A stretch of DNA of 64,000 bases from Thomasclavelia spiroformis DSM 1552 (GTDB lineage Bacteria; Bacillota_I; Bacilli_A; Erysipelotrichales; Coprobacillaceae), in the NCBI RefSeq assembly GCF_025149465.1, contig NZ_CP102275.1, positions 248,001-312,000 on the forward strand, written 5' to 3'. The first letter of the stretch is position 1. Every line of letters begins with the position of its first letter. Below are positions 46,016 through 60,358 of the stretch, one piece after another. Under the pieces are notes generated by a model. The model searched no databases and was not told the DNA's origin. It saw nothing but the letters and a program-made list of their open reading frames with translations. Both the position numbers and the translations under genes were made by a program.

Positions 46016-46059
46016 TTTGAACATCAAACTATTTACAAATATTTTGATTTTGTTATAAT
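46016..46059 (+). promoter_or_regulatory. acpP promoter with FabT-type operator
   Basis: TTTGA-ACA-TCAAA (46016-46028) lies just upstream of TTTACA (46032-46037) and TATAAT (46054-46059), spaced by 16 bp. The core TTTGA-N3-TCAAA is that known for FabT of streptococci and lactococci, and a fabT-like gene is in this cluster. The upstream 180 bases hold no gene. Confidence 0.75.
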
Positions 46060-46091: not shown

Positions 46092-46325
46092 GTGAACGCA
46101 GAATTTGAAAAAGTAAAAGAAATAATTGTAGATTCTTTAAGTTGCGATGAAGATGCAGTAACTTTAGAAGCTAATTTAAAAGAAGATTTAGAAGCTGATT
46201 CATTAGATGCAGTTGAATTAATTATGGCTGTTGAAGAAGAATTCGATATCGAAATTCCTGATGAAAAAGCTGCTGAAATCAAAACAGTACAAGATATCGT
46301 AGATTATATTAAAGCTAATGCTTAA
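46092..46325 (+). CDS. acpP: Acyl carrier protein
   Basis: The 77-residue acidic helical protein has the phosphopantetheine-attachment motif [10 protein letters not shown] (Ser near residue 37). It carries the growing acyl chain as a thioester for the fab enzymes downstream. The start is GTG at 46092 after GAGGAGG. A hairpin separates it from accB, so it is probably also made as a separate abundant transcript. Confidence 0.96.
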
Positions 46326-46329
46326 TTTT

Positions 46330-46352
46330 ATTACCCAGTTTAACTGGGTAAT
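46330..46352 (+). terminator. Terminator or attenuator after acpP
   Basis: TTACCCAGT and ACTGGGTAA form a nine-base stem; the following tract is T-rich only in part, so readthrough into accB is possible. Confidence 0.6.
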
Positions 46353-46370
46353 AATTTTACAAAAAAATAT

Positions 46371-46383
46371 TTTGATGTTCAAA
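46371..46383 (+). promoter_or_regulatory. FabT-type operator upstream of accB, site 1
   Basis: TTTGA-TGT-TCAAA. It overlaps a weak -35 (TTGATG 46372-46377) that pairs with TATTTT (46395-46400) at 17-bp spacing, so it may control a second promoter for the acc-fab genes. Confidence 0.7.
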
Positions 46384-46414
46384 CTATGAACATTTATTTT
46401 TTAATGAAATTTAC

Positions 46415-46427
46415 TTTGATACTCAAA
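46415..46427 (+). promoter_or_regulatory. FabT-type operator upstream of accB, site 2
   Basis: TTTGA-TAC-TCAAA, centred 44 bp after site 1 and just before the accB SD. The spacing is about four helical turns, which would place two bound regulators on the same DNA face. Confidence 0.68.
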
Positions 46428-46442
46428 ACAAAGGAGAAAGTT

Positions 46443-46892
46443 ATGAAAATTGATTTAGTAAAACAACTTATCAGTGAATTTGAAAATTCAGAAGTTTTTA
46501 AAATGAAAGTGGAAATGGAAGATGTTAAATTGGAATTAGAAAAAGCACCTGTAGCACCTGTTAATGTAGTTAGTGCACCAGTTGCAACTCCAGTGGTACA
46601 AGCCCCTGTTAACCAAGCAGCACCTGTTGAAGCTAAAGAAGAACCAGTGGTATCAGGAACACCAGTTAAATCACCGATTGTAGGGGTGTTTTATGCAGCT
46701 AGTTCACCAACAGCTAAACCATATGTTGAAGTAGGTAGTAAAGTAAAAGCAGGACAAGTGTTATGTATTGTTGAAGCGATGAAAGTAATGAATGAAATTA
46801 AAGCACCGATTGATGGTACAGTAACAGCAATTATGGCAAATACTGAAGATTTGGTAGAATATGATCAAGTATTAATGATTATTGAAGGGTAG
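46443..46892 (+). CDS. accB: Biotin carboxyl carrier protein of acetyl-CoA carboxylase
   Basis: The 149-residue protein has an N-terminal helical part, an Ala/Pro/Val-rich flexible linker (about 35-70) and a C-terminal biotinyl domain with EAMKVMNE, where Lys114 is biotinylated. It carries CO2 between AccC and AccDA in the first step of fatty acid synthesis. ATG 46443 follows AAAGGAG; the in-frame start at 46386 lies within an operator region and is not preferred. Confidence 0.95.
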   Translation: MKIDLVKQLISEFENSEVFKMKVEMEDVKLELEKAPVAPVNVVSAPVATPVVQAPVNQAAPVEAKEEPVVSGTPVKSPIVGVFYAASSPTAKPYVEVGSKVKAGQVLCIVEAMKVMNEIKAPIDGTVTAIMANTEDLVEYDQVLMIIEG

Positions 46893-46897
46893 TAAGT

Positions 46898-48250
46898 ATG
46901 TTTAAACGAATTTTAATTGCCAACCGTGGCGAAATCGCGGTAAGAATTATTCGAACTTGTCAGGAGTTAGGAATTGAAGCTGTAGCTATTTATTCTAATG
47001 TTGATAGTACTTCGTTACATGTACAATTAGCAGATCATGCAGTTTGTATTGGTTCAGCTAAAGCAACAGATAGTTACTTGAATATGAAAAATATATTAAG
47101 TGCAGCTACTGCTCTTGGATGTGATGCTATTCATCCAGGTTTTGGTTTTTTATCTGAAAATTCAACATTTGCTCGATTGGTTGAAGAATGTGGAATGACT
47201 TTTATTGGACCAAGTGGTGATATTATAGATATGATGGGGAATAAAAGTATGGCACGTCAAAAGATGATTGAAGCTAATGTTCCGGTAGTTCCTGGAAGTG
47301 ATGGAAGTGTTAATACTTTAGAAGATGCTAGAAAAGTAGCTAAGGAAATTGGTTTTCCAGTTTTAATTAAAGCTTCAGCTGGAGGTGGCGGACGTGGAAT
47401 GCGTAAGGCTTTTAGTGAAGATGAATTTGATGATGCATATTTAACAGCTAAGGCAGAAGCTAAAGCATGTTTTGGAGATGATGATATGTATATTGAAAAA
47501 TTGATTTTGAACCCAAAGCATATTGAATTCCAAATTTTAGCTGATAATTATGGCAATGTTATTCATTTAGGAGAACGTGATTGTTCAATTCAACGTCGTA
47601 ATCAAAAAATGATTGAAGAAGCACCAAGTAAAGCCTTAACACCTTTATTAAGACAAAAAATGGGAGAAGATGCTATTAAAGCAGCTAAAGGTGCTGGATA
47701 TCGAAATGCAGGAACGATTGAGTATGTTCTAGATCAAGATGGCAATTATTATTTCATTGAGATGAATACGCGTATTCAAGTAGAACATCCAATTACTGAA
47801 ATGATAACTGGCGTAGATTTAATCAAGGAACAAATTAGAATAGCTGCTAATCAAAAATTAACTTATAAACAAAGTGATATTCATTTAAATGGTCATGCTA
47901 TTGAATGTCGTATTAATGCTGAAAACCCTAAAGAGGGATTTAGACCTTGTCCAGGGACAGTAAATAGTTTACATTTACCTGGAGGACTAGGGGTTAGAAT
48001 TGACACAGCATTGTATCAAGGGTATAAAGTATCATCTCATTATGATTCAATGATTGCAAAAGTTATTGTTCATGGATCAAATCGTTTAGAAGCGATTCGA
48101 AGAATGCGTCGAGTTTTAGCTGAATTGGTGATTGATGGAATAGATACTAATCAAGAATTACAATATTTAATTTTACATACGGGAGAGTATGTAAAAGGAA
48201 ACTTTGATACAAGTTTTATTGAAAATAACTTAGATAAGTTGGTGGGATAA
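46898..48250 (+). CDS. accC: Biotin carboxylase of acetyl-CoA carboxylase
   Basis: The 450-residue ATP-grasp enzyme carboxylates the biotin on AccB using bicarbonate and ATP. Signatures are ILIANRGEIAVRIIRTC at the start, the glycine loop KASAGGGGRGMRKA, the ERDCSIQRRNQK segment and FIEMNTRIQVEHPITE. The length is that of a stand-alone AccC. It starts five bases after accB. Confidence 0.97.
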   Translation: MFKRILIANRGEIAVRIIRTCQELGIEAVAIYSNVDSTSLHVQLADHAVCIGSAKATDSYLNMKNILSAATALGCDAIHPGFGFLSENSTFARLVEECGMTFIGPSGDIIDMMGNKSMARQKMIEANVPVVPGSDGSVNTLEDARKVAKEIGFPVLIKASAGGGGRGMRKAFSEDEFDDAYLTAKAEAKACFGDDDMYIEKLILNPKHIEFQILADNYGNVIHLGERDCSIQRRNQKMIEEAPSKALTPLLRQKMGEDAIKAAKGAGYRNAGTIEYVLDQDGNYYFIEMNTRIQVEHPITEMITGVDLIKEQIRIAANQKLTYKQSDIHLNGHAIECRINAENPKEGFRPCPGTVNSLHLPGGLGVRIDTALYQGYKVSSHYDSMIAKVIVHGSNRLEAIRRMRRVLAELVIDGIDTNQELQYLILHTGEYVKGNFDTSFIENNLDKLVG

Positions 48251-48253
48251 TAA

Positions 48254-49126
48254 ATGGAAGAATTATTTAAAGAGCGAAAAGAGAAATTAAATTTATTTAA
48301 GTCATTTCGTAATAAACTACAGGATAAAAAAAGAATTGATGTACCAGATGGTTTGTATACTAAATGTGATACATGTGGAGAATCAATTTTAAGTGAAGAT
48401 CTTAAAGAAAATTATTATGTTTGTCCAGCTTGTGGGGCTCATTTAAAAATGAGAGCTTATACGCGTTTAAATCTTTTATATGATGGGGGAAAATATAAAG
48501 AATTATACCAATATATAAAATCTAATGATCCCTTGATGTTTCCTGGCTATAAAGATAAATTAGCTAAATTAAAACAAACAACTGGTCTTGACGAAGCAGT
48601 TGTTTGTGCTACAGGAAAAATTGATGGAAGAAAAGTAGTCGTTTGTGTTATGGATGCACGCTTTTTAGTAGGAAGTATGTCTGGAGCAGTTGGTGAAAAA
48701 ATAACTAGAGCAATTGAACATGCAACAAAAAGAAAAACGCCACTGATTATTTTTACTACTTCTGGAGGAGCGAGAATGCAAGAGGGGATTATTTCTTTGA
48801 TGCAAATGGCAAAAACTAGTGCAGCATTAGCAAGACATAATGATGCAGGATTATTGTATATATCTTATATTACTAATCCAACATATGGAGGAGTAACTGC
48901 TTCATTTGCAATGCTTGGTGATATTATTATTGGTGAACCTGATGCTTTAATTGGTTTTGCAGGACCGCGAGTAATTGAATCAACAATAAAACAGAAATTA
49001 CCAGATGGTTTTCAAAAAACAGAATTTATGCAAGATCAAGGGTTTATTGATATGATTGTAGAACGTAAAGATATGCGAAATACAATTATTAAATTATTAA
49101 AAATGCATAGCCGGGGGGTTCAATAA
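48254..49126 (+). CDS. accD: Acetyl-CoA carboxylase carboxyltransferase beta subunit
   Basis: The 290-residue subunit has the N-terminal zinc ribbon (Cys38, Cys41, Cys57, Cys60) specific to bacterial AccD and a crotonase-like domain with TTSGGARMQEGIISLMQM and YGGVTASFAMLGD. With AccA it moves CO2 from biotin to acetyl-CoA to give malonyl-CoA. It ends on the start codon of accA. Confidence 0.96.
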   Translation: MEELFKERKEKLNLFKSFRNKLQDKKRIDVPDGLYTKCDTCGESILSEDLKENYYVCPACGAHLKMRAYTRLNLLYDGGKYKELYQYIKSNDPLMFPGYKDKLAKLKQTTGLDEAVVCATGKIDGRKVVVCVMDARFLVGSMSGAVGEKITRAIEHATKRKTPLIIFTTSGGARMQEGIISLMQMAKTSAALARHNDAGLLYISYITNPTYGGVTASFAMLGDIIIGEPDALIGFAGPRVIESTIKQKLPDGFQKTEFMQDQGFIDMIVERKDMRNTIIKLLKMHSRGVQ

Positions 49127-50076
49127 TGTCACTTCAGGAAAAAGAGATTAAAATTAAAGAAATTGAATTGGAATTGTTAAAGTTAAAAGATGATCAAGAA
49201 ATTGATCATACTTTACAGATTCAAGATTTAGAAAATACAAAAGCTAAACTTGAAGCGGAGGCTTATCGAAATATAAGTGCTTATGATCGTGTTTATTTAG
49301 CACGTAAAGCTGATCGACCAAATGTTTATGAATATATTGAAAATCTTTTTGATGATTTTATTGAATTACATGGTGATCGTCTATATAAAGATGATGGTTC
49401 AATTGTTGGTGGATTAGCAATGTTTAATAATATTCCATGTACTGTAATTGGTCATCTTAAAGGTAGAACTTTGGAAGAAAATTTAAAATGTAATTTTGGA
49501 ATGTCGTCACCAGAGGGTTATCGTAAAGCAATGAGATTGATGAAACAAGCAGAGAAATTTAATCGCCCAATTATTACTTTTGTAGATACGCCAGGGGCTT
49601 ATCCTGGACTTAAGGCTGAAAAACATGGAATTGGAGAAGCAATAGCCCGTAATTTAATGGAAATGTCGAAGCTAACAGTACCAATTATTGTTATTGTAAT
49701 TGGTGAAGGTGGTAGCGGTGGAGCTTTAGCATTAAGTATTGGTGATCGTATGGTAATGCTTGAAAATAGTGTTTATTCGGTTTTATCACCAGAAGGTTTT
49801 GCTTCGATTTTATGGAAAGATAAAAATGGTAGTCGAGTTAGTGAAGCAGCTGAATTAATGAAAATGACTTCTGCTGATTTATATGAGATGAAAATTATCG
49901 ATAAGATTATTAAAGAACCCCGCGGTGGAATTACTAAAAATCGTGAATATGTATATAAACGCTTAAGAATATATATTCGTGATAGTCTAGAGGAATTAAT
50001 GAAATTATCTAAAACTTCTTTAATAACTAAACGATATAATAAATTTAGAGAAATGGGTCGAATTACTAATGACTAA
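49126..50076 (+). CDS. accA: Acetyl-CoA carboxylase carboxyltransferase alpha subunit
   Basis: The 316-residue subunit begins with a helical stretch and continues with the crotonase-like domain: YEYIENLFDDFIELHGDR, GHLKGRTLEEN, FVDTPGAYPGLKAE and IGEGGSGGALALSIGD. It completes the acc set beside accD. Its stop overlaps the fabT start by eight bases, so regulator and enzyme are co-translated. Confidence 0.96.
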   Translation: MSLQEKEIKIKEIELELLKLKDDQEIDHTLQIQDLENTKAKLEAEAYRNISAYDRVYLARKADRPNVYEYIENLFDDFIELHGDRLYKDDGSIVGGLAMFNNIPCTVIGHLKGRTLEENLKCNFGMSSPEGYRKAMRLMKQAEKFNRPIITFVDTPGAYPGLKAEKHGIGEAIARNLMEMSKLTVPIIVIVIGEGGSGGALALSIGDRMVMLENSVYSVLSPEGFASILWKDKNGSRVSEAAELMKMTSADLYEMKIIDKIIKEPRGGITKNREYVYKRLRIYIRDSLEELMKLSKTSLITKRYNKFREMGRITND

Positions 50077-50530
50077 TCGCGATATTTTAAATCGAGAATT
50101 AATTAATCATTTGTTTGTAAGATTATTTAATCAAATATTAGATATTGAAGGACGCTATATGTCAGGTAAGGGTATAGAGGATTTAAGTTTATCAGAATTA
50201 CACATAATTGATGTAATTAGTTCTTTACCGAATCCTGCAATGTCTAATATTGCTTCAAAAGCAACATTAACAAATGGAACTATTACAACAGCAATAAAAA
50301 AATTGGAAGTTAAAGGCTATGTAAAGCGTCGTAAAGATGATCTTGACCGACGAATTATTAGAGTTGAATTAACGACTAAAGGTAATCGTGCTTGTAAAGT
50401 TCACAGAGAATTTCATGAAGAAATGGTTAATAAAGTTTGTGAAGATAGTCATGTTCTTGATGATGAATTATTGATAAAATCTTTACAGCAATTGGTTTAT
50501 TTCTTTGAAGACGTCAAAGAAAAATATTAG
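50069..50530 (+). CDS. fabT: FabT-like MarR-family regulator of fatty acid synthesis
   Basis: The 153-residue protein has the MarR winged helix (about 45-110): LSLSELHIIDVI, SNIASKATLTNGTITTAIKKLEVKGYV and the wing RRKDDLDRRIIRVELTTKG. It resembles FabT over its length, including the HREFHEEMV helix after the wing. FabT represses fab genes when bound to long acyl-ACP. Its position between accA and fabH, and three TTTGA-N3-TCAAA sites in the cluster, support this. In streptococci fabT opens the cluster; here it lies in the middle. Confidence 0.88.
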   Translation: MTNRDILNRELINHLFVRLFNQILDIEGRYMSGKGIEDLSLSELHIIDVISSLPNPAMSNIASKATLTNGTITTAIKKLEVKGYVKRRKDDLDRRIIRVELTTKGNRACKVHREFHEEMVNKVCEDSHVLDDELLIKSLQQLVYFFEDVKEKY

Positions 50531-50538
50531 GAGATTAT

Positions 50539-51480
50539 ATGAATGGGTTAAAAGTGTTGTCAACTGGATATTATGCACCACAAAAAGTTCTTGATAATTT
50601 TGACCTAGAGCAAATGGTTGAAACATCAGATGAGTGGATTGTTTCTAGGACAGGAATAAAGAAAAGACATATTGTAGAAAATGAAAGCTGTATGGATTTA
50701 GGGTATCAGGCAGCTTTAAAGGCAATTGAAAAAATTGATAAAAATAAAATTGGTTTAATTATTTGTGCAACAATGACACCTGATTATTTTACCCCTAGTA
50801 TGGCTTGTTTAATTCAAGAACGTTTAGGGTTAAATGAACAAGAAGTAATGTGTTTTGATTTGAATGCAGCTTGTAGTGGATTTGTTTATGCATTGACTGT
50901 TGCACATTCATTATTACAAAGTTTGGATGATAAATATGCTTTAATAATTGGTAGTGAAGAAATTTCAAAAATTATTGATTTTACAGACCGTAATACATGT
51001 GTATTATTTGGCGATGGAGCAGGAGCGATTGTTGTTTCTAAAGGAACCGGAATATTTGCTAGTTACTGCAATTCATCAGGTAATTTAGAGGCATTAAAAG
51101 CTCCAGCAATTAATAAAAATGAAAATAATCATTATCTTACAATGGCTGGTCAAGATGTTTTCAAATTTGCTGTTAAAGTAATTCCTGAAAGCATTGATGC
51201 TGTTTTAGAAAAAACTTCACTAACGCTTGATGATATTAAATATGTAGTTTGTCATCAGGCAAATTATCGAATTATTAGAAATGTTTATAAAAAAATGAAA
51301 TCCACTGAAGAAAAGTTTTATATGAATTTACAAGAATATGGAAATACATCTGCAGCAAGTATTCCACTTGCATTAGGTGAAATGAATGAAAAAGGAATGT
51401 TGAATCCTGGAGATAAAATTATTTGTGTCGGTTTTGGTGGCGGTTTAACTTGGGGTGCAACATTGATAGAATGGAGTTAA
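50539..51480 (+). CDS. fabH: Beta-ketoacyl-ACP synthase III
   Basis: The 313-residue enzyme condenses acetyl-CoA (or another short acyl-CoA) with malonyl-ACP to start each chain. The catalytic triad is Cys112 in NAACSGFVYA, His in VCHQANYRI and Asn in EYGNTSAASIP. The start has an AGGAG site eight bases after fabT. Confidence 0.96.
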   Translation: MNGLKVLSTGYYAPQKVLDNFDLEQMVETSDEWIVSRTGIKKRHIVENESCMDLGYQAALKAIEKIDKNKIGLIICATMTPDYFTPSMACLIQERLGLNEQEVMCFDLNAACSGFVYALTVAHSLLQSLDDKYALIIGSEEISKIIDFTDRNTCVLFGDGAGAIVVSKGTGIFASYCNSSGNLEALKAPAINKNENNHYLTMAGQDVFKFAVKVIPESIDAVLEKTSLTLDDIKYVVCHQANYRIIRNVYKKMKSTEEKFYMNLQEYGNTSAASIPLALGEMNEKGMLNPGDKIICVGFGGGLTWGATLIEWS

Positions 51481-51483
51481 AAA

Positions 51484-52416
51484 ATGAAATTAAATGAAAT
51501 ATTAAATATTAAATATCCTTTAATTCAAGGAGGAATGGCAAATATCGCAACTGGTGAATTTGCTGCTAGTGTATCAAATGCTGGGGCTTTAGGTTTAATT
51601 GGAGCTGGTGGTATGGATACAGCTACTTTAAAAAAGAATATTGAAATTTGTCGTAGTTTAACTGATAAACCATTTGGTGTAAATATTATGTTAATTAATC
51701 CTTGTGCTGATGAAATGGCTCAATTAGTAATTGATGAAAAAGTTCCAATTGTAACAACTGGAGCTGGAAATCCTGGTAAATATATTGAAGCATGGAAAGC
51801 AGCTGGAATTAAAGTTTTACCTGTAGTACCAAGTGTTACATTGGCTAAACGTTTAGAAAAATATAATGTTGATGCAATTATTGTTGAAGGTACAGAAGCA
51901 GGAGGACATATTGGAGAATTAACAACAATGTCTTTAGTTCCTCAAGTTGTTGAGGCTGTAAATGTTCCGGTTGTTGCTGCTGGAGGAATTGCTAGTGGTA
52001 AACAATTATTAGCAGCTTATGCTCTTGGTGCATGTGGGGTACAAGTAGGAACATGCTTACTTGCAAGTGAAGAATGTCCAATTCATGATAATTATAAACA
52101 AGCAATTATCAAAGCTAAAGATACAAGTACAACTGTAACAGGAAGAATTGCAGGGACACCAGTTAGAATTATTAAAAACAAGATGGCCAAAGAATATATC
52201 AAGCGTGAAAAAGAGGGTGCTGATATGATGGAACTTGAAAAATATACTCTAGGTTCTTTAAAAAGAGCAGTTCTTGAAGGTGATATAGATACTGGTTCAT
52301 TAATGGCAGGACAAGTTGCCGGAATGGTAAATGAAATTAAACCAGTAGCGACAATAATTAAAGAGTTATTTGATGATTGTAATCAAGAGTTTAAAAGACT
52401 AGAAAGTGAGTTTTAA
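51484..52416 (+). CDS. fabK: FMN-dependent enoyl-ACP reductase II
   Basis: The 310-residue TIM-barrel flavoprotein matches FabK: YPLIQGGMANIATGEFAA at the start, His142 in EGTEAGGHIGE, the phosphate-binding VAAGGIASGKQL and GVQVGTCLLASEEC. It reduces trans-2-enoyl-ACP with NAD(P)H in the last step of each elongation cycle. No FabI is in the cluster, so this is the likely enoyl reductase, which would make the pathway insensitive to triclosan. It starts three bases after fabH. Confidence 0.93.
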   Translation: MKLNEILNIKYPLIQGGMANIATGEFAASVSNAGALGLIGAGGMDTATLKKNIEICRSLTDKPFGVNIMLINPCADEMAQLVIDEKVPIVTTGAGNPGKYIEAWKAAGIKVLPVVPSVTLAKRLEKYNVDAIIVEGTEAGGHIGELTTMSLVPQVVEAVNVPVVAAGGIASGKQLLAAYALGACGVQVGTCLLASEECPIHDNYKQAIIKAKDTSTTVTGRIAGTPVRIIKNKMAKEYIKREKEGADMMELEKYTLGSLKRAVLEGDIDTGSLMAGQVAGMVNEIKPVATIIKELFDDCNQEFKRLESEF

Positions 52417-52418
52417 AT

Positions 52419-53483
52419 ATGAAAAGCGTAAAAATTGGTGAAATGACTCTAGAAGTACCGATAATTCAAGGTGGTATGGGTGTAGGTATTTCACTTGGAA
52501 ATTTAGCAGGAAATGTTGCTTTAAATGGAGGAATGGGAGTTATTTCTACGGCTCAACCTGGATATCGAGCTGCAGATTTTGAAAAAAATACTGTAGAAGC
52601 TAATCGCCGAGAATTAGCTAATGAAATTCAAAAAGCAAAGGAGATTGCAAAAGGTAAAGGAATAGTTGCAATTAATGCAATGGTTGCTCTTACTGATTAT
52701 GCAGGAATGGTGGAAGTTGCAGTAAAAAATAAAATTGATGCAATTATTTCAGGGGCTGGATTACCGTTGAATTTACCAGGATTAGTAAAAGATACTAAAA
52801 TTAAGTTAGCACCAATTGTTTCAAGTGGAAAAGCAGCTAAATTGATTTGTAAAACATGGGATCGTAAGTTTAAGGTGATACCTGACTTTATTGTTATTGA
52901 AGGTAGTGAAGCAGGTGGTCATTTAGGTTTTCATAAAGAAGATGTTTTGAATAAAACAACAGCTAAATTGGCTGATATTTTTAAAGAAGTAAAAGAAACG
53001 ATTCAACCTTTTATTGAAAAATATCAAAAAGAAATACCGATTTTTGTTGCAGGTGGTATTTATGATAGTAAAGATATTCAAGAGTATTTAGATTTAGGTG
53101 TAGATGGGGTACAAATGGCAACACGCTTTATTTGTACTAAAGAATGTGATGCAAGTGATAAATATAAACAGGCATTTATCGATGCTAAAAAAGAGGATAT
53201 TGAAATTGTTAAGTCTCCAGTAGGAATGCCAGGTAGAGCAATTATGACTAAACTTACTGAAAAATTAAAAGCTGGTGAGCGAATTCCGGTAAAAAGATGT
53301 TATAATTGTTTAGTACCATGTGATATTAAAACTACTCCTTATTGTATAAGTGATGCTTTAATTAATGCTGTAAAGGGTAATCTTGATGAAGGATTAGTTT
53401 TTAGTGGTAGTAACGGATATCATAATGATAAAATTGTATCAGTAAAAGAATTAATGGATGAATTGAAAGAGGGACTTAAATAA
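52419..53483 (+). CDS. NMO-family flavoprotein with four-cysteine motif (FabX-like candidate)
   Basis: The 354-residue protein is a second nitronate-monooxygenase/FabK-fold TIM barrel: VPIIQGGMGVGISLG, His168 in EGSEAGGHLG, VAGGIYDSKDI and GVQMATRFICTKEC. It differs from FabK in a C-terminal extension carrying Cys294-x2-Cys297-x3-Cys301-x7-Cys309, a pattern suited to a [4Fe-4S] cluster. Helicobacter FabX, which makes unsaturated fatty acids, is an NMO-family flavoprotein with such a cluster. The position between fabK and fabD, overlapping the fabD start, argues for a role in acyl-ACP metabolism. The FabX-like activity is inference. Confidence 0.72.
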   Translation: MKSVKIGEMTLEVPIIQGGMGVGISLGNLAGNVALNGGMGVISTAQPGYRAADFEKNTVEANRRELANEIQKAKEIAKGKGIVAINAMVALTDYAGMVEVAVKNKIDAIISGAGLPLNLPGLVKDTKIKLAPIVSSGKAAKLICKTWDRKFKVIPDFIVIEGSEAGGHLGFHKEDVLNKTTAKLADIFKEVKETIQPFIEKYQKEIPIFVAGGIYDSKDIQEYLDLGVDGVQMATRFICTKECDASDKYKQAFIDAKKEDIEIVKSPVGMPGRAIMTKLTEKLKAGERIPVKRCYNCLVPCDIKTTPYCISDALINAVKGNLDEGLVFSGSNGYHNDKIVSVKELMDELKEGLK

Positions 53484-54415
53484 TGAGTAAAATAGGATTT
53501 GTTTATGCTGGTCAAGGTAGCCAAGTAGTTGGAATGGGTAAATCATTTTATGATAATTATCAAATAGCTAAAGATGTATTTGATAATATTGATTTAGATA
53601 TTGATGTAAAAAAAATATGTTTTGAAGGTCCAATTGAAGAATTATCAAAAACTAGTAATACACAACCATGTATGGTTACTGTTGCGATAATTGCTACAAG
53701 ATTATTGAAGGAAAATGGAATTGTACCTGATTATGTTGCAGGATTGAGTTTAGGTGAATATTCAGCATTAAATGCTGCTGGTGTATTAACTGATAACGAT
53801 GCAATTGATTTAGTTCGTTTCCGTGGTCAAGCTATGGAAAGAGCTGCAGCAGGAATAGAAAGTAAGATGTTTGCAATTATTGGTTTAGATCGTGAATTGT
53901 TAAATGAAGCGGTTAATGAAGCTAAAGATTTAGGTTTTGTTGCGATTGCTAATTATAATTGTCCTGGCCAATTAGTTATTGCCGGAGAAGTAGATGCCGT
54001 AACTAAAGCTAGTGAGTTAGCATTGGAAAAAGGAGCATGTCGTGCAATTCCTTTGAATACTAGTGGACCATTCCATACTGAATTATTAGCTCCAGCAAGT
54101 AAAGAACTTAAAGAAAAGTTTACTACTGTAACTTTTAATGAAATGCAAATACCAGTTGTATTTAATAGTTCTGCAAAAGAATTAGAGCCTGGCACTAGTA
54201 TTGCAAAGATGTTAGAAAAACAAGTTATGTCATCAGTTTATTTTGAAGATAGTATCCGTTATATGATTTCTAAAGGGGTGGATACAATTATTGAAATTGG
54301 TCCGGGAAAAGTATTAAGTGGATTTATTAGAAAAATAGATAAGAGTATTAAAACATATCAAGTTGAAGATCAAGCATCATTAGAAAAAACATTAATGGGG
54401 TTAAAAGGAGAATAA
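53483..54415 (+). CDS. fabD: Malonyl-CoA:ACP transacylase
   Basis: The 310-residue enzyme transfers malonyl from CoA to ACP. It shows VYAGQGSQVVGMG at the start, the nucleophile Ser89 in GLSLGEYSAL, the substrate Arg in VRFRGQAME and His in GPFHTELL. Its ATG overlaps the last base of the preceding flavoprotein gene. Confidence 0.97.
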   Translation: MSKIGFVYAGQGSQVVGMGKSFYDNYQIAKDVFDNIDLDIDVKKICFEGPIEELSKTSNTQPCMVTVAIIATRLLKENGIVPDYVAGLSLGEYSALNAAGVLTDNDAIDLVRFRGQAMERAAAGIESKMFAIIGLDRELLNEAVNEAKDLGFVAIANYNCPGQLVIAGEVDAVTKASELALEKGACRAIPLNTSGPFHTELLAPASKELKEKFTTVTFNEMQIPVVFNSSAKELEPGTSIAKMLEKQVMSSVYFEDSIRYMISKGVDTIIEIGPGKVLSGFIRKIDKSIKTYQVEDQASLEKTLMGLKGE

Positions 54416-54416
54416 C

Positions 54417-55169
54417 ATGAGATTAAAAGATAAAGTGGTTTTAGTAACAGGTGGAGCCCAAGGGATTGGTAAAGAAATCTGTTTAACATGTGCTCGAGAG
54501 GGAGCTAAGATAGTTGTTAATTATGTTGATTTTGGTGATAATGAAGCAATTGCTAAAGCAACAAAAGCTGAATTAGAAAGTTTAGGAGCAACTGTTATGT
54601 TGGTACAAGCTAATGTTGCTTCATTTGAAGAAACTGAAAAAATGTTTAAAGATGTTGTAAAAGAATTTGGAAGAGTTGATGTTTTAGTTAATAATGCTGG
54701 TATTACTAAAGATGGATTATTAATGAGAATGAAAGAAAATGATTTTGATGCTGTTATTGATGTTAATTTAAAAGGTACATGGAATTGTATGAAACATGCT
54801 ACTAAAATCATGATGAAACAACGTTATGGAAGAATTATTTCAATGTCTTCTGTAGTTGGAGTAATGGGAAATGCAGGTCAAGTAAATTATTCTGCTAGTA
54901 AGGCTGGAATTATTGGGATGACAATGTCTTTAGCACGTGAAGTTGGAAGTCGTGGAATTACTGTTAATGCTATTGCTCCTGGTTTTATTAAAACAGCGAT
55001 GACTGATGTTTTACCAGATGATATTAAAGATAGCATGGCTAAACAAATTCCATTAGGTGTTTTTGGTGAAGTTAGCGATATTGCTAATACTGTAGTTTTC
55101 TTAGCTAGTGATGATGCAAAATATATTACTGGTCAAACTATTCATGTTGATGGTGGAATGGCGATGTAA
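54417..55169 (+). CDS. fabG: 3-oxoacyl-ACP reductase
   Basis: The 250-residue short-chain dehydrogenase reduces 3-ketoacyl-ACP with NADPH. The cofactor motif TGGAQGIG is at about 11-18, NNAG at about 92-95 and the catalytic Ser-Tyr-Lys in MSSVVG and NYSASKAG (Tyr158, Lys162). It follows fabD after one base. Confidence 0.97.
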
Positions 55170-55177
55170 GGAGAGAT

Positions 55178-56422
55178 ATGATGGAAAGAAGAAGAGTTGT
55201 AGTTACTGGATTAGGAGCAATTAATGCAATTGGTCATAATGTAGAAGAAACTTGGAAAAGTATTAAAGATGGTGTTTGCGGAATTGCTGAAATAACTAAT
55301 TATGATAAAGAATTAACAAGAGTTAAAATTGCAGGTGAAGTTAAAGATTTTAATCCAGCAGATTATTTAGATAAAAAAGCAATTCGTAAAATGGATCGAT
55401 TCACTCAATTTGGTGTAATTGCTGCAAAAGAAGCTTTTAAAGATTCTGGATTAAAAATAGAAGATATTAATGCAGATCGTTTTGGAGTAGTAGTTTCTAG
55501 TGGAATTGGTGGTCTTGCTACAATTGAAAAAGATCATAGCAAAGGATTAGAAAAAGGATATGATCGTGTATCACCTTTCTTTGTGCCAATGGCAATTACT
55601 AACTTAGCGGCTGGAAATATTGCAATCGAACTTGGTGCTAAAGGAATTTGTACTTGTCCAGTTACAGCATGTGCTGGAGGAACAAATGCAATTGGTGATG
55701 CTTTTAGAAATATTCGTGATGGATATCAAGATATTATTGTTGCTGGTGGAGCTGAAGCTAGTATTACACCACTTGGAATTGGTGGTTTCTCTTCAATGAA
55801 AGCTCTTTGTGATAACAATGATCCAAATCATGCATCAATTCCTTTTGATGCAAATCGCAGTGGTTTTGTTATGGGTGAAGGTGCTGGAATAATTGTTCTT
55901 GAAGAATTAGAACATGCAAAAGCAAGAGGTGCTCATATTTACTGTGAAATGATTGGTTATGGAGTTAGTTGTGATGCCCATCATATTACTGCTCCTTTAG
56001 AAGATGGTTCAGGTGGTGCTAAGGCAATGATCAACGCTTTAGAAGATGCAAATATTAAACCTGAAGATGTAACTTATATTAATGCTCATGGTACAAGTAC
56101 ACCATTAAATGATAAAGGTGAAACTATGGCAATTAAAACTGCATTAAAAGATGCAGCCAATAGCGTTGCTGTTTCTTCAACTAAAGGAAATACAGGACAT
56201 TGTTTAGGTGCGGCAGGAGGAATTGAAGGAGTTATTTGTGTTAAAGCAATTGAAGAAGGATTTATCCCTCCAACAATTAATTACACAACACCTGATCCAC
56301 TTTGCGATTTAGATATTGTACCTAATAAAGGAAGAAAACAAGAAGTAAATGTAGCTATGTCAAATTCATTGGGGTTTGGTGGACATAATGCTACAATTGT
56401 ATTTAAGAAATATGGAGAATAG
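55178..56422 (+). CDS. fabF: Beta-ketoacyl-ACP synthase II
   Basis: The 414-residue elongating condensing enzyme has the Cys-His-His triad: Cys165 in [12 protein letters not shown], His in [11 protein letters not shown] and His in [12 protein letters not shown]. It is the only long-chain condensing enzyme in the cluster, so it must serve both saturated and any unsaturated chains. ATG 55178 and ATG 55181 are both possible; AAGGAGAG precedes them. Confidence 0.96.
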
Positions 56423-56425
56423 AAG

Positions 56426-56851
56426 ATGGAATTAAATAGTAATCAAATTCAAGAAATCAATCCACATCGTTATCCATTTGCCTTAGTTGACCGTATTACT
56501 GATTATCAGCCAGGTCAATGGGCAAAAGGAATCAAATGTGTTAGTGTAAATGAAATGCACTTTTGTGGACATTTTCCACAACATCATGTTATGCCTGGGG
56601 TTTTGATTGTTGAGGCATTGGCACAAGTTGGTTGTATTGCAATTCTTTCTAAAGAAGAAAATAAAGGTAAAATTGCTTTCTTTGGGGGAATTAATAAATG
56701 TAAATTTAAAGGGCAAGTTGTACCAGGTGATGTATTAGAAATGGAATGTGTTTTAACTAAACAAAAAGGACCAATTGGAATTGGTGATGCAATAGCAAAA
56801 GTAAATGGTAAAGTTGTTTGTAAAGCTGAATTAACTTTTGCAGTTCAATAA
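56426..56851 (+). CDS. fabZ: 3-hydroxyacyl-ACP dehydratase
   Basis: The 141-residue hot-dog-fold enzyme removes water from 3-hydroxyacyl-ACP. The active site is in HFCGHFPQHHVMPGVLIVEA, with His49 and Glu63. Its start INPHRYPFALVDRI is typical. It is the only dehydratase in the cluster, and no FabA, FabM or FabN is present beside it. It ends the operon. Confidence 0.97.
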   Translation: MELNSNQIQEINPHRYPFALVDRITDYQPGQWAKGIKCVSVNEMHFCGHFPQHHVMPGVLIVEALAQVGCIAILSKEENKGKIAFFGGINKCKFKGQVVPGDVLEMECVLTKQKGPIGIGDAIAKVNGKVVCKAELTFAVQ

Positions 56852-58401: not shown

Positions 58402-59343
58402 TTAATCAAAAGTTACATATTGATTTTTTAATGGAGGGACTACTTTTAACTGTTCAACTGTTAAAATAGGAATATCTTTTTGATATTCTTGATCATAACT
58501 AGTAGATATTTTTCCTTCAACAACAATCCATTCTTCAGGAATAAGTTTACTTGCAAGAGGACTAATACAAACCATCCCAATTAATGATGTATCTTCTTCA
58601 CAGCAAACTAAAGCTTGTCGACCTAAAATAAAACCATTTTCGATTAAACGATCCAAACCAATAAATTTACCTTTCAATTTAACTGTTTTATTTACATATT
58701 TATCTGGATGATCCATAGCATCCATGCAGAAAATACCAAAATTATGGTCTTCTATTTCTAAATAATCTTTATTAACATCAAATGGTAAATCATCAATAAT
58801 ATTGGTTGTATCAATGGTACCATTTTCAAATTCATAAATAATTTGAGTGTTGCTGTTAATTGCTTTAACATTATTTCTAAGCATTGATTTTTTAATACTT
58901 TTATCATAACGATTAAAAATAACTAGGTCACTAAATACAATTTGACCATATACTAAAGAACGCATATTATTTAAATACATACTAAAAGTATTTGCATTAA
59001 TAGTAGTCAATACTTGTACAACATTCCAATTCTCTGGAATTTTTTCTTTTACAAAAACATTTAAATCCATCATTCCATTTGCTTCAATGATGATTTGAGT
59101 AGGACGATATTTTAATTCTAATTGCTTTAATTGTAAAGTGGTAAATTTTTCATAGTCTAATATTTCTAAGGCAGTATTTGACTTTTTTAAATATGTTTCG
59201 TTGTATGAAACTTCACCTTCTTCAAAGCTAATCAATAAAGTATCTTCACCACTATAGAAATCAGGATTCATTAAAGTATCATTGATAAATGAAGTTTTTC
59301 CACTATCAAGAAATCCAGCAAAAATATAAACACGTGTTTCCAT
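58402..59343 (-). CDS. COG0523 GTPase fused to a TIGR03943/DUF1980-like domain
   Basis: The 313-residue protein has an N-terminal CobW/COG0523-type GTPase domain (Walker A GFLDSGKTSF; NRYD in place of NKxD) but lacks the CxCC metal motif. Its second half (about 200-313: FGIFCMDAMDHPDKYVNKTV...KLKGKFIGLDR) resembles the OB-fold-like C-terminal domain of TIGR03943/YcgQ proteins, which are found with metal-linked permeases. It may work with the next upstream GTPase in metal delivery. Its start overlaps the last base of that gene. Confidence 0.75.
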   Translation of the reverse strand: METRVYIFAGFLDSGKTSFINDTLMNPDFYSGEDTLLISFEEGEVSYNETYLKKSNTALEILDYEKFTTLQLKQLELKYRPTQIIIEANGMMDLNVFVKEKIPENWNVVQVLTTINANTFSMYLNNMRSLVYGQIVFSDLVIFNRYDKSIKKSMLRNNVKAINSNTQIIYEFENGTIDTTNIIDDLPFDVNKDYLEIEDHNFGIFCMDAMDHPDKYVNKTVKLKGKFIGLDRLIENGFILGRQALVCCEEDTSLIGMVCISPLASKLIPEEWIVVEGKISTSYDQEYQKDIPILTVEQLKVVPPLKNQYVTFD

Positions 59344-60335
59344 TAATTTACCTCATCAAATAAAACTGATAATTTATCATCATTTAAATTTTCACCAATA
59401 ACACAAATTCTTCCAGTAAAATCAGCTTGTCCTGTGCGAATTTGATATTCACCTGGAACTAAATCAAAATATAACCACTTACCCTCACTACTATCAACAT
59501 ATCCCTTAGCTCTTAATATATTACCATATTCACTATGTTCACTTAGTTTTTTTAAAATAGCTTCAAGTTGTATTTTTGAGTATTTTTTAGGTGTTTGAAT
59601 GCCCCAGCTAGTAAATACTTCATCGGCATGGTGATCATGATCTTGGTGATGTTCATGATGGCAACATTCATGGTGCTCGTGATGATCGTGATGACAACAT
59701 TCATGATCTTCATTTACTTGTTTCAATAAATCACTTTGAAGAGTGGTATTACTAAAGGCATTAGTGATTGCTTGTTTAGTTAGTTGAAGCCAAGGAGTAG
59801 TGATAATATTTACATGATCATTATATTTTTTTATGATTTTGATGCATTCATCTAATTGGAAATCACTAATATCTTGAGTTCTGCTTAAAATAATCAATGA
59901 AGCATATTTAATTTGATTATTAAAGAATTCTCCAAAATTTTTAGTATATAAACGACATTTTTTAGCATCAATTACAGTTATATAATTATCTAAAACTAAT
60001 TTATCACTAGAAATATTATTAACTGCTTTGATTACATCAGATAATTTACCTACTCCTGAAGGTTCAATAATAATTCGATCAGGATGATATGTTTCTAAAA
60101 CCTCTTTTAATGATACCTCAAAATCACCAACCAAGCTACAACAAATACATCCAGAATTGATTTCAGTTACTTCTATGCCGCTATTATTCATAAATGTACC
60201 ATCAATACCGATTTCTCCAAATTCATTTTCAATCAATACAATTTGTTCATCTTGGTATACTTCCTTAATTAATTTTTTTATAAACGTTGTTTTACCGGCA
60301 CCAAGAAAGCCAGATATAATATCAACTTTACTCAT
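59343..60335 (-). CDS. COG0523 (CobW-type) metal-chaperone GTPase with His-rich loop
   Basis: The 330-residue GTPase has Walker A GFLGAGKTTF, the family metal motif SGCICCSL (Cys63, Cys65, Cys66) and a His-rich insertion at about 207-237 with more than a dozen histidines and several cysteines, before the C-terminal CobW_C domain. COG0523 members such as ZNG1 deliver zinc or other metals to target enzymes. The His-rich loop suggests metal storage or capture. ATG 60335 has an AGGAGA site eight bases upstream; the ATG at 60344 overlaps the SD. It is the first gene of a two-gene operon. Confidence 0.9.
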   Translation of the reverse strand: MSKVDIISGFLGAGKTTFIKKLIKEVYQDEQIVLIENEFGEIGIDGTFMNNSGIEVTEINSGCICCSLVGDFEVSLKEVLETYHPDRIIIEPSGVGKLSDVIKAVNNISSDKLVLDNYITVIDAKKCRLYTKNFGEFFNNQIKYASLIILSRTQDISDFQLDECIKIIKKYNDHVNIITTPWLQLTKQAITNAFSNTTLQSDLLKQVNEDHECCHHDHHEHHECCHHEHHQDHDHHADEVFTSWGIQTPKKYSKIQLEAILKKLSEHSEYGNILRAKGYVDSSEGKWLYFDLVPGEYQIRTGQADFTGRICVIGENLNDDKLSVLFDEVN

Positions 60336-60358
60336 TAAACTCATCTCCTATCTAAAAC

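What the first reader, a model, noticed from the sequence alone, without database searches (positions are those of the whole stretch)
52419..53483. A second FabK-like flavoprotein with a 4-Cys motif in the fab operon: candidate FabX-type unsaturated fatty acid enzyme
The gene sits between fabK and fabD with a one-base overlap, so it belongs to the fatty acid operon. It has the NMO/FabK barrel and the His168 motif, plus Cys294, Cys297, Cys301 and Cys309 (C-x2-C-x3-C-x7-C), absent from the neighbouring FabK. From established knowledge, Helicobacter FabX is an NMO-family flavoenzyme with a [4Fe-4S] cluster that dehydrogenates and isomerises acyl-ACP to make unsaturated fatty acids. The cluster has only one dehydratase (FabZ) and one FabF and no FabA, FabM or FabN, so the source of double bonds is otherwise open. 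An anaerobe would need an electron acceptor other than oxygen, which would be new.
Basis: partly seen in the sequence, partly recalled or inferred. Interest (0 to 1): 0.78.

Follow-up and report, generated by a model that had tools for sequence, protein, structure and literature searches.

The report
FabX-type unsaturated-fatty-acid enzyme in anaerobe
This gene, in the fatty-acid operon of a gut-type anaerobe, encodes a relative of Helicobacter pylori FabX and is probably the enzyme that makes membrane fats unsaturated without oxygen, a step whose enzyme has been missing in clostridia-like bacteria for decades.

Summary
Window 52419-53483 (+) encodes a 354-aa FMN TIM-barrel protein between fabK and fabD in a complete fab operon (acpP to fabZ). 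Its closest solved relative is H. pylori FabX over the full length (E 6e-78, 43% identity; predicted model 344 residues at 2.0 A, Z 48.9), well ahead of FabK (E 3e-19, Z 37). The catalytic His, the FMN contacts, the basic ACP-binding helix and four C-terminal cysteines are conserved; all four cysteines are present in 71 of 71 sampled relatives. The complete genome has one FabZ, and searches found no crotonase-fold protein (hence no FabM), desaturase, ETF or UbiA-type quinone-synthesis enzyme. Relatives are common in Clostridia and sit beside fab genes in more than half of 80 fetched loci, in about eight arrangements. It is therefore a FabX-family enzyme and very probably the source of double bonds. 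FabX/UfaA homologues in anaerobes are already described, so this is a new member of a known kind.

The parts
52419..53483 (+). fabX-like gene, 354 aa: FMN TIM barrel (about 1-266) plus C-terminal 4-Cys subdomain (about 267-354)
52920..52922 (+). codon of His168, equivalent to catalytic His182 of H. pylori FabX
53298..53345 (+). codons of C294, C297, C301, C309: predicted [4Fe-4S] ligands (C-x2-C-x3-C-x7-C)
51484..52416 (+). fabK, enoyl-ACP reductase II (310 aa), lacks the 4-Cys subdomain; would compete with FabX for trans-2-enoyl-ACP
53483..54415 (+). fabD, start overlaps fabX stop by one base
   Evidence: assigned by sequence and by the conserved fab cluster order
54417..55169 (+). fabG
55178..56422 (+). 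fabF
56426..56851 (+). fabZ, the only FabA/FabZ-fold gene in the genome
50539..51480 (+). fabH
50069..50530 (+). MarR-family regulator, FabT-like by position
   Evidence: PF01047
46898..50076 (+). accC (46898-48250), accD (48254-49126), accA (49126-50076)
46443..46892 (+). accB (biotin carboxyl carrier; ORF listed from 46386, better start 46443 behind an RBS)
46092..46325 (+). acpP, acyl carrier protein, first gene of the operon
46016..46031 (+). FabT-type operator TTTGAACATCAAACTA, adjoining the -35 of a TTTACA-16-TATAAT promoter (46032-46059)
46371..46386 (+). second operator TTTGATGTTCAAACTA; a third, TTTGATACTCAAA, at 46415-46427

Best explanation
The gene encodes a FabX-family FMN/[4Fe-4S] flavoprotein that puts the cis double bond into growing acyl-ACP chains in this anaerobe. 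Shown here by computation: membership by sequence, fold and active-site residues; place in a fab operon; no FabM, no second FabZ-type dehydratase and no desaturase found in the genome. Inferred: the enzyme binds acyl-ACP by its basic helix (K138, K145, K150), places the chain between FMN and His168, and yields cis-3-decenoyl-ACP, which FabF then elongates. Most likely mode (my estimate 0.5): it takes trans-2-decenoyl-ACP made by FabZ, in competition with FabK, and isomerises it to cis-3. That is redox-neutral and needs no external electron acceptor. The stated confidence refers to family and role, not to this mode.
For: Homology: best PDB match is H. pylori FabX, full length, E 6e-78, 265 bits; FabK 72 bits, characterised NMOs 45 bits or less. 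Model pLDDT 94.8 fits FabX 7e1q at Z 48.9, 2.0 A, 344 residues, against Z 37 for FabKs and 28-34 for NMOs and related reductases. Residues N86, E161, Q232, T235 (FMN), H168 and S266 (catalysis), G114, I133, S135, G170 (phosphopantetheine), K138, K145, K150 (ACP helix) match those named in PMC8626469. In a FabK-rooted tree FabX forms one clade of 34 including HpFabX, apart from 17 FabKs. Operon linkage: fab genes within 10 kb in about 46 of 80 named loci, in about eight arrangements. Co-occurrence with FAS-II: in the window's family 32 of the 34 genomes with FabZ have it and none of the 4 without; in the class 39 of 40 FabX genomes have FabZ, against 41 of 254 without FabX (Fisher p 5e-25, not corrected for kinship). 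Alternatives not found in the genome. For the redox-neutral mode: no ETF alpha and no UbiA-type (menaquinone/ubiquinone) gene found; [quoted passage not shown] over-expressed F. nucleatum FabX relieves FabK inhibition (MIC 0.4 to 3.1 ug/mL, PMC11091888), which fits an isomerase diverting FabK's substrate better than a dehydrogenase consuming FabK's product (my inference).
Against: No activity, cofactor content or fatty-acid profile of this organism was available. In the class sample 41 of 80 genomes with FabZ lack FabX, and only 4 of these have an ECH-fold protein and 1 a second FabZ, so FabX is not universal and its absence is not visibly compensated. Two genomes of one genus lack it from an otherwise intact operon. 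H. pylori FabX requires oxygen for its dehydrogenase activity (PMC8626469). Some ACP contacts (T130, R160) and acyl-tunnel residues (Y277, F74) are not kept.
Confidence: 0.85

Rival explanations
1. Same family and role, but it works as in H. [quoted passage not shown]
For: H. pylori FabX does this with oxygen (PMC8626469). The Neisseria homologue NGO1024 works anaerobically with an unknown acceptor (as cited in PMC11300592). All cluster ligands are conserved, suggesting an electron-transfer role.
Against: From established thermodynamics, enoyl/acyl-thioester couples lie near 0 V, far above NAD and ferredoxin. The genome search found no ETF alpha and no UbiA family member, so no quinone or ETF route is evident. 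No recurrent redox partner gene was seen beside fabX.
Confidence: 0.33
2. A second enoyl-ACP reductase (FabK paralogue) that backs up FabK, not a double-bond-forming enzyme.
For: Same fold and catalytic His; next to fabK; F. nucleatum FabX over-expression partly offsets FabK inhibition (PMC11091888).
Against: Scores 114.5 against the FabK cut-off of 453.1, while the neighbour scores 435. The FabK C-terminal region is replaced by the 4-Cys subdomain as in FabX.
Confidence: 0.08
3. An ordinary nitronate monooxygenase that happens to lie in the operon.
For: Pfam calls it PF03060 NMO, but this family also holds FabK and FabX.
Against: Characterised NMOs score 45 bits or less against 265 for FabX, Z 28-34 against 48.9. 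Repeated linkage to fab genes in different positions. NMOs consume oxygen.
Confidence: 0.02

Closest known systems
Helicobacter pylori FabX (HP0773; PDB 7e1q, 9lt5)
   Same: Full-length homology, FMN barrel, catalytic His182/His168, Ser273/Ser266, four cysteines in the same C-terminal subdomain, basic ACP helix
   Different: 43% identity; first two cysteines x2 apart instead of x3 and last gap x7 instead of x11; about ten residues of a lid loop (after residue 54) missing; Y277 is Met; beside FabK rather than FabI; host without detected quinone synthesis
Neisseria gonorrhoeae UfaA / NGO1024
   Same: Reported as essential for anaerobic unsaturated fatty acid synthesis, acceptor unknown (as cited in PMC11300592); anaerobically induced (PMC3032703)
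   Different: Sequence not available here, so not compared directly; proteobacterial host
Fusobacterium nucleatum FabX homologue (C4N14_08920)
   Same: Anaerobe that also has FabK; cluster cysteines kept (PMC11091888)
   Different: There in an operon with a hypothetical protein, not with fab genes; 51% identical to H. pylori FabX according to that paper
Streptococcus pneumoniae FabM
   Same: [quoted passage not shown] Several clostridial fabX genes sit just before marR-fabH; from established knowledge fabM lies just before fabT there
   Different: Unrelated crotonase fold, no flavin or Fe-S; absent from this genome
FabK (enoyl-ACP reductase II)
   Same: Same superfamily, FMN and catalytic His
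   Different: NAD(P)H domain instead of 4-Cys subdomain; makes saturated chains

Membership tests
FabX | Full-length homology to H. pylori FabX, closer than to FabK or NMO | tested here: met
FabX | FMN-binding residues (N99, E175, Q240, T243) | tested here: met
   N86, E161, Q232, T235
FabX | Catalytic His182 and its partner Ser273 | tested here: met
   H168 and S266, 71 of 71 homologues
FabX | Four cysteines that can hold a [4Fe-4S] cluster in the C-terminal subdomain | tested here: met
   C294, C297, C301, C309 conserved; spacing of the first and last pair differs from H. pylori
FabX | A [4Fe-4S] cluster actually bound | not testable with these tools
FabX | Basic ACP-binding helix (K152, K159, R164) with R160 and T130 | tested here: inconclusive
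   K138, K145, K150 keep the charge; R160 is T146 and T130 is L117
FabX | Acyl-ACP dehydrogenase/isomerase activity | not testable with these tools
   no assay
FabX | Oxygen as electron acceptor | not testable with these tools
   host searches found no ETF alpha or UbiA; oxygen use cannot be read from sequence
FabK | NCBIfam TIGR03151 cut-off (453.1 bits) | tested here: not met
   114.5 bits; (the neighbouring FabK scores 435.3)
Nitronate monooxygenase proper | Closest relation to characterised nitronate monooxygenases | tested here: not met
   FabX far ahead
FabM / FabA / FabN | Crotonase or hot-dog fold | tested here: not met
   TIM barrel, PF03060

The most novel reading that the evidence does not exclude
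In strict anaerobes FabX-type enzymes work as redox-neutral, FMN- and [4Fe-4S]-dependent trans-2/cis-3 enoyl-ACP isomerases. This would be the missing double-bond enzyme of many Clostridia and related Firmicutes, and the oxygen-consuming dehydrogenase of H. pylori would be a derived variant.
Probability: 0.4. Interest if true: 0.75.

Novelty: new member of a known kind. Interest (0 to 1): 0.5.

Why it matters
Clostridia gave rise to the textbook anaerobic pathway of unsaturated fatty acids, yet their double-bond enzyme was still called 'novel and unknown' in 2009 (PMC2700279). This family, repeatedly tied to fab operons across Clostridia, is the best candidate and easy to test. It also bears on drug design: FabX was presented as rare in healthy gut flora and hence a selective H. 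pylori target, from a 50% identity cut-off (PMC8626469, PMC12079444). Relatives at 35-44% identity with the same cysteines are found in Blautia, Roseburia, Mediterraneibacter, Faecalibacterium and many others.

Tried and rejected
Single-sequence structure prediction failed (pLDDT 35.8); the 71-row alignment gave 94.8. Mutual exclusion of FabX with FabM or extra FabZ across the class was tested and not found: those alternatives are nearly absent everywhere, so the test has no power. A search for a recurrent redox-partner gene beside fabX found none. The papers of Isabella and Clark 2011 and Bi et al. 2016 are not held and are known only through citing papers. Papers on fatty acids of the window's own genus were not found. 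C. acetobutylicum itself was not checked.

Full report
Observation. The ORF at 52419-53483 (+) is 354 aa, starts 2 bases after fabK and overlaps fabD by one base. The operon runs acpP-accB-accC-accD-accA-marR-fabH-fabK-fabX-fabD-fabG-fabF-fabZ, 46092-56851.

Family. Against all PDB sequences the best hits are the H. pylori FabX entries, full length, E 6e-78; FabKs follow at 3e-19 and characterised nitronate monooxygenases at 5e-11 or worse. BLASTP identity to FabX is 43%. A model built from 71 window and locus proteins has pLDDT 94.8. It aligns to FabX 7e1q over 344 residues at 2.0 A with Z 48.9, against Z 37 for FabKs and 28-34 for NMOs and related reductases. The tree separates a FabX clade of 34, with H. 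pylori FabX in it, from 17 FabKs including the window's own. The position of H. pylori FabX inside that clade is not resolved (support 0.04 for the remaining 33).

Active site. Residues that PMC8626469 names for FMN, catalysis and phosphopantetheine are almost all kept: N86, E161, Q232, T235; H168, S266; G114, I133, S135, G170. The basic ACP helix is kept as K138, K145, K150. Differences are R160 to T, T130 to L, Y277 to M, and a missing lid-loop segment. All four cysteines are conserved in 71 of 71 relatives; spacing is C-x2-C-x3-C-x7-C in 64, x3-x3-x7 in 6 and x2-x3-x8 in 1, against x3-x3-x11 in H. pylori. Cluster binding itself is an inference.

Genome. The window lies in a complete 2.53 Mb genome. 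Searches found one FabA/FabZ-fold gene, no ECH_1 family member and so no FabM, no membrane fatty acid desaturase, no ETF alpha and no UbiA-family prenyltransferase. Several of the named control genomes rang in each search, so these absences are meaningful within the limits of each profile.

Distribution. In the window's family 32 of 38 genomes hold a close relative, complete or in pieces; in those mapped, fabK lies directly beside it. 34 of the 38 hold exactly one FabZ: 32 of these have FabX, and the 4 genomes without FabZ have none. In 294 genomes of the class, 39 of 40 with FabX have FabZ, against 41 of 254 without FabX. The kinship of genomes was not corrected for. In the 80 fetched loci, about 46 have fab genes within 10 kb. 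The gene lies between fabK and fabD (e.g. Eubacterium callanderi), after accA or accD (Blautia, Mediterraneibacter), between fabZ and fabH, between accC and accD, before marR-fabH (Clostridium tyrobutyricum, C. acidisoli), after fabZ, before fabD, or divergent from the cluster (C. saudiense, C. sartagoforme). Repeated association in different positions is good evidence for a role in fatty acid synthesis.

Regulation. The palindrome TTTGANNNTCAAA occurs exactly three times in the window, all in the promoter region of this operon (0.57 expected). The extended form TTTGANNNTCAAACTA occurs twice in the whole genome, both there, one of them adjoining the -35 of a near-consensus promoter. The palindrome is kept upstream of acpP in two relatives. 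The pneumococcal FabT palindrome is ANTTTGACTGTNAAATT (PMC8406281). With a MarR-family gene inside the operon, FabT-like control of fabX together with fabK is likely, an inference.

Mechanism. Two modes give the same product. In the H. pylori mode decanoyl-ACP is oxidised and oxygen takes the electrons. In an anaerobe without evident quinone synthesis or ETF, the near-zero potential of enoyl/acyl thioesters (established knowledge) leaves few acceptors. The second mode starts from FabZ's trans-2-decenoyl-ACP and only moves the double bond; PMC8626469 states that oxygen is not required for that step and that tunnel shape drives it. A further hint is that FabX over-expression in F. nucleatum raises the MIC of a FabK inhibitor from 0.4 to 3.1 ug/mL (PMC11091888): an isomerase would divert FabK's substrate, a dehydrogenase would add to FabK's work. 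A flavin/[4Fe-4S] enzyme with an isomerase reaction is known from clostridia, 4-hydroxybutyryl-CoA dehydratase (from memory). I put the isomerase mode at about 0.5 and the dehydrogenase mode at about 0.33.

Limits. Half of the FabZ-bearing genomes in the class lack FabX without a visible substitute, and G017 and G018 lack it from an intact operon while their congener G019 keeps it. Such species may take up unsaturated acids, do without, or use something unknown. Fatty acids C16:1 and C18:1 are reported in Erysipelotrichaceae grown in rich medium (PMC7543727), but the window's place in or near that group is my guess.

Novelty. Homologues in anaerobes were already reported or proposed: NGO1024 in Neisseria (title and citation in PMC11300592), F. 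nucleatum (PMC11091888), Bacteroidales (PMC11300592) and a list of mostly anaerobic species (PMC8626469). What this adds is the operon evidence across Clostridia, the ligand-spacing variant, the genome-level absence of alternatives, and the redox-neutral hypothesis.

Noticed in passing
46016-46031, 46371-46386, 46415-46427: FabT-type operators at the fab operon promoter; the extended form occurs nowhere else in the genome and the palindrome is kept in relatives L140 and L141.
   Followed up: partly
46333-46349: Inverted repeat ACCCAGTTTAACTGGGT between acpP and accB, possibly an attenuator or terminator that would make acpP transcript more abundant than the rest.
   Followed up: no
L137, L139 against L138: Two genomes of one genus lack fabX between fabK and fabD with the rest of the operon intact, while a congener keeps it: a natural experiment.
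   Followed up: partly
L037 (G027): fabX relative in G027 appears broken (split frames with stops), and its congener G028 has neither a FabX nor a FabZ match.
   Followed up: no
L058, L064, L065, L083, L098: fabX lies before marR-fabH or fabH in several Clostridium genomes, the place that fabM holds in streptococci: possible non-homologous replacement.
   Followed up: partly
L057-L136 as a group: Published claim that FabX homologues are rare in healthy gut flora rests on a 50% identity cut-off; relatives at 35-44% with the same cysteines are common in gut Firmicutes.
   Followed up: partly
58402-60344: Two adjacent CobW/G3E-type GTPase-like genes on the minus strand, one with a His-rich metal-binding stretch.
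   Followed up: no
L100, L130, L133: Close relatives in MAGs labelled Thermodesulfovibrionales, Dictyoglomaceae and Deltaproteobacteria: transfer between phyla or mis-binning.
   Followed up: no
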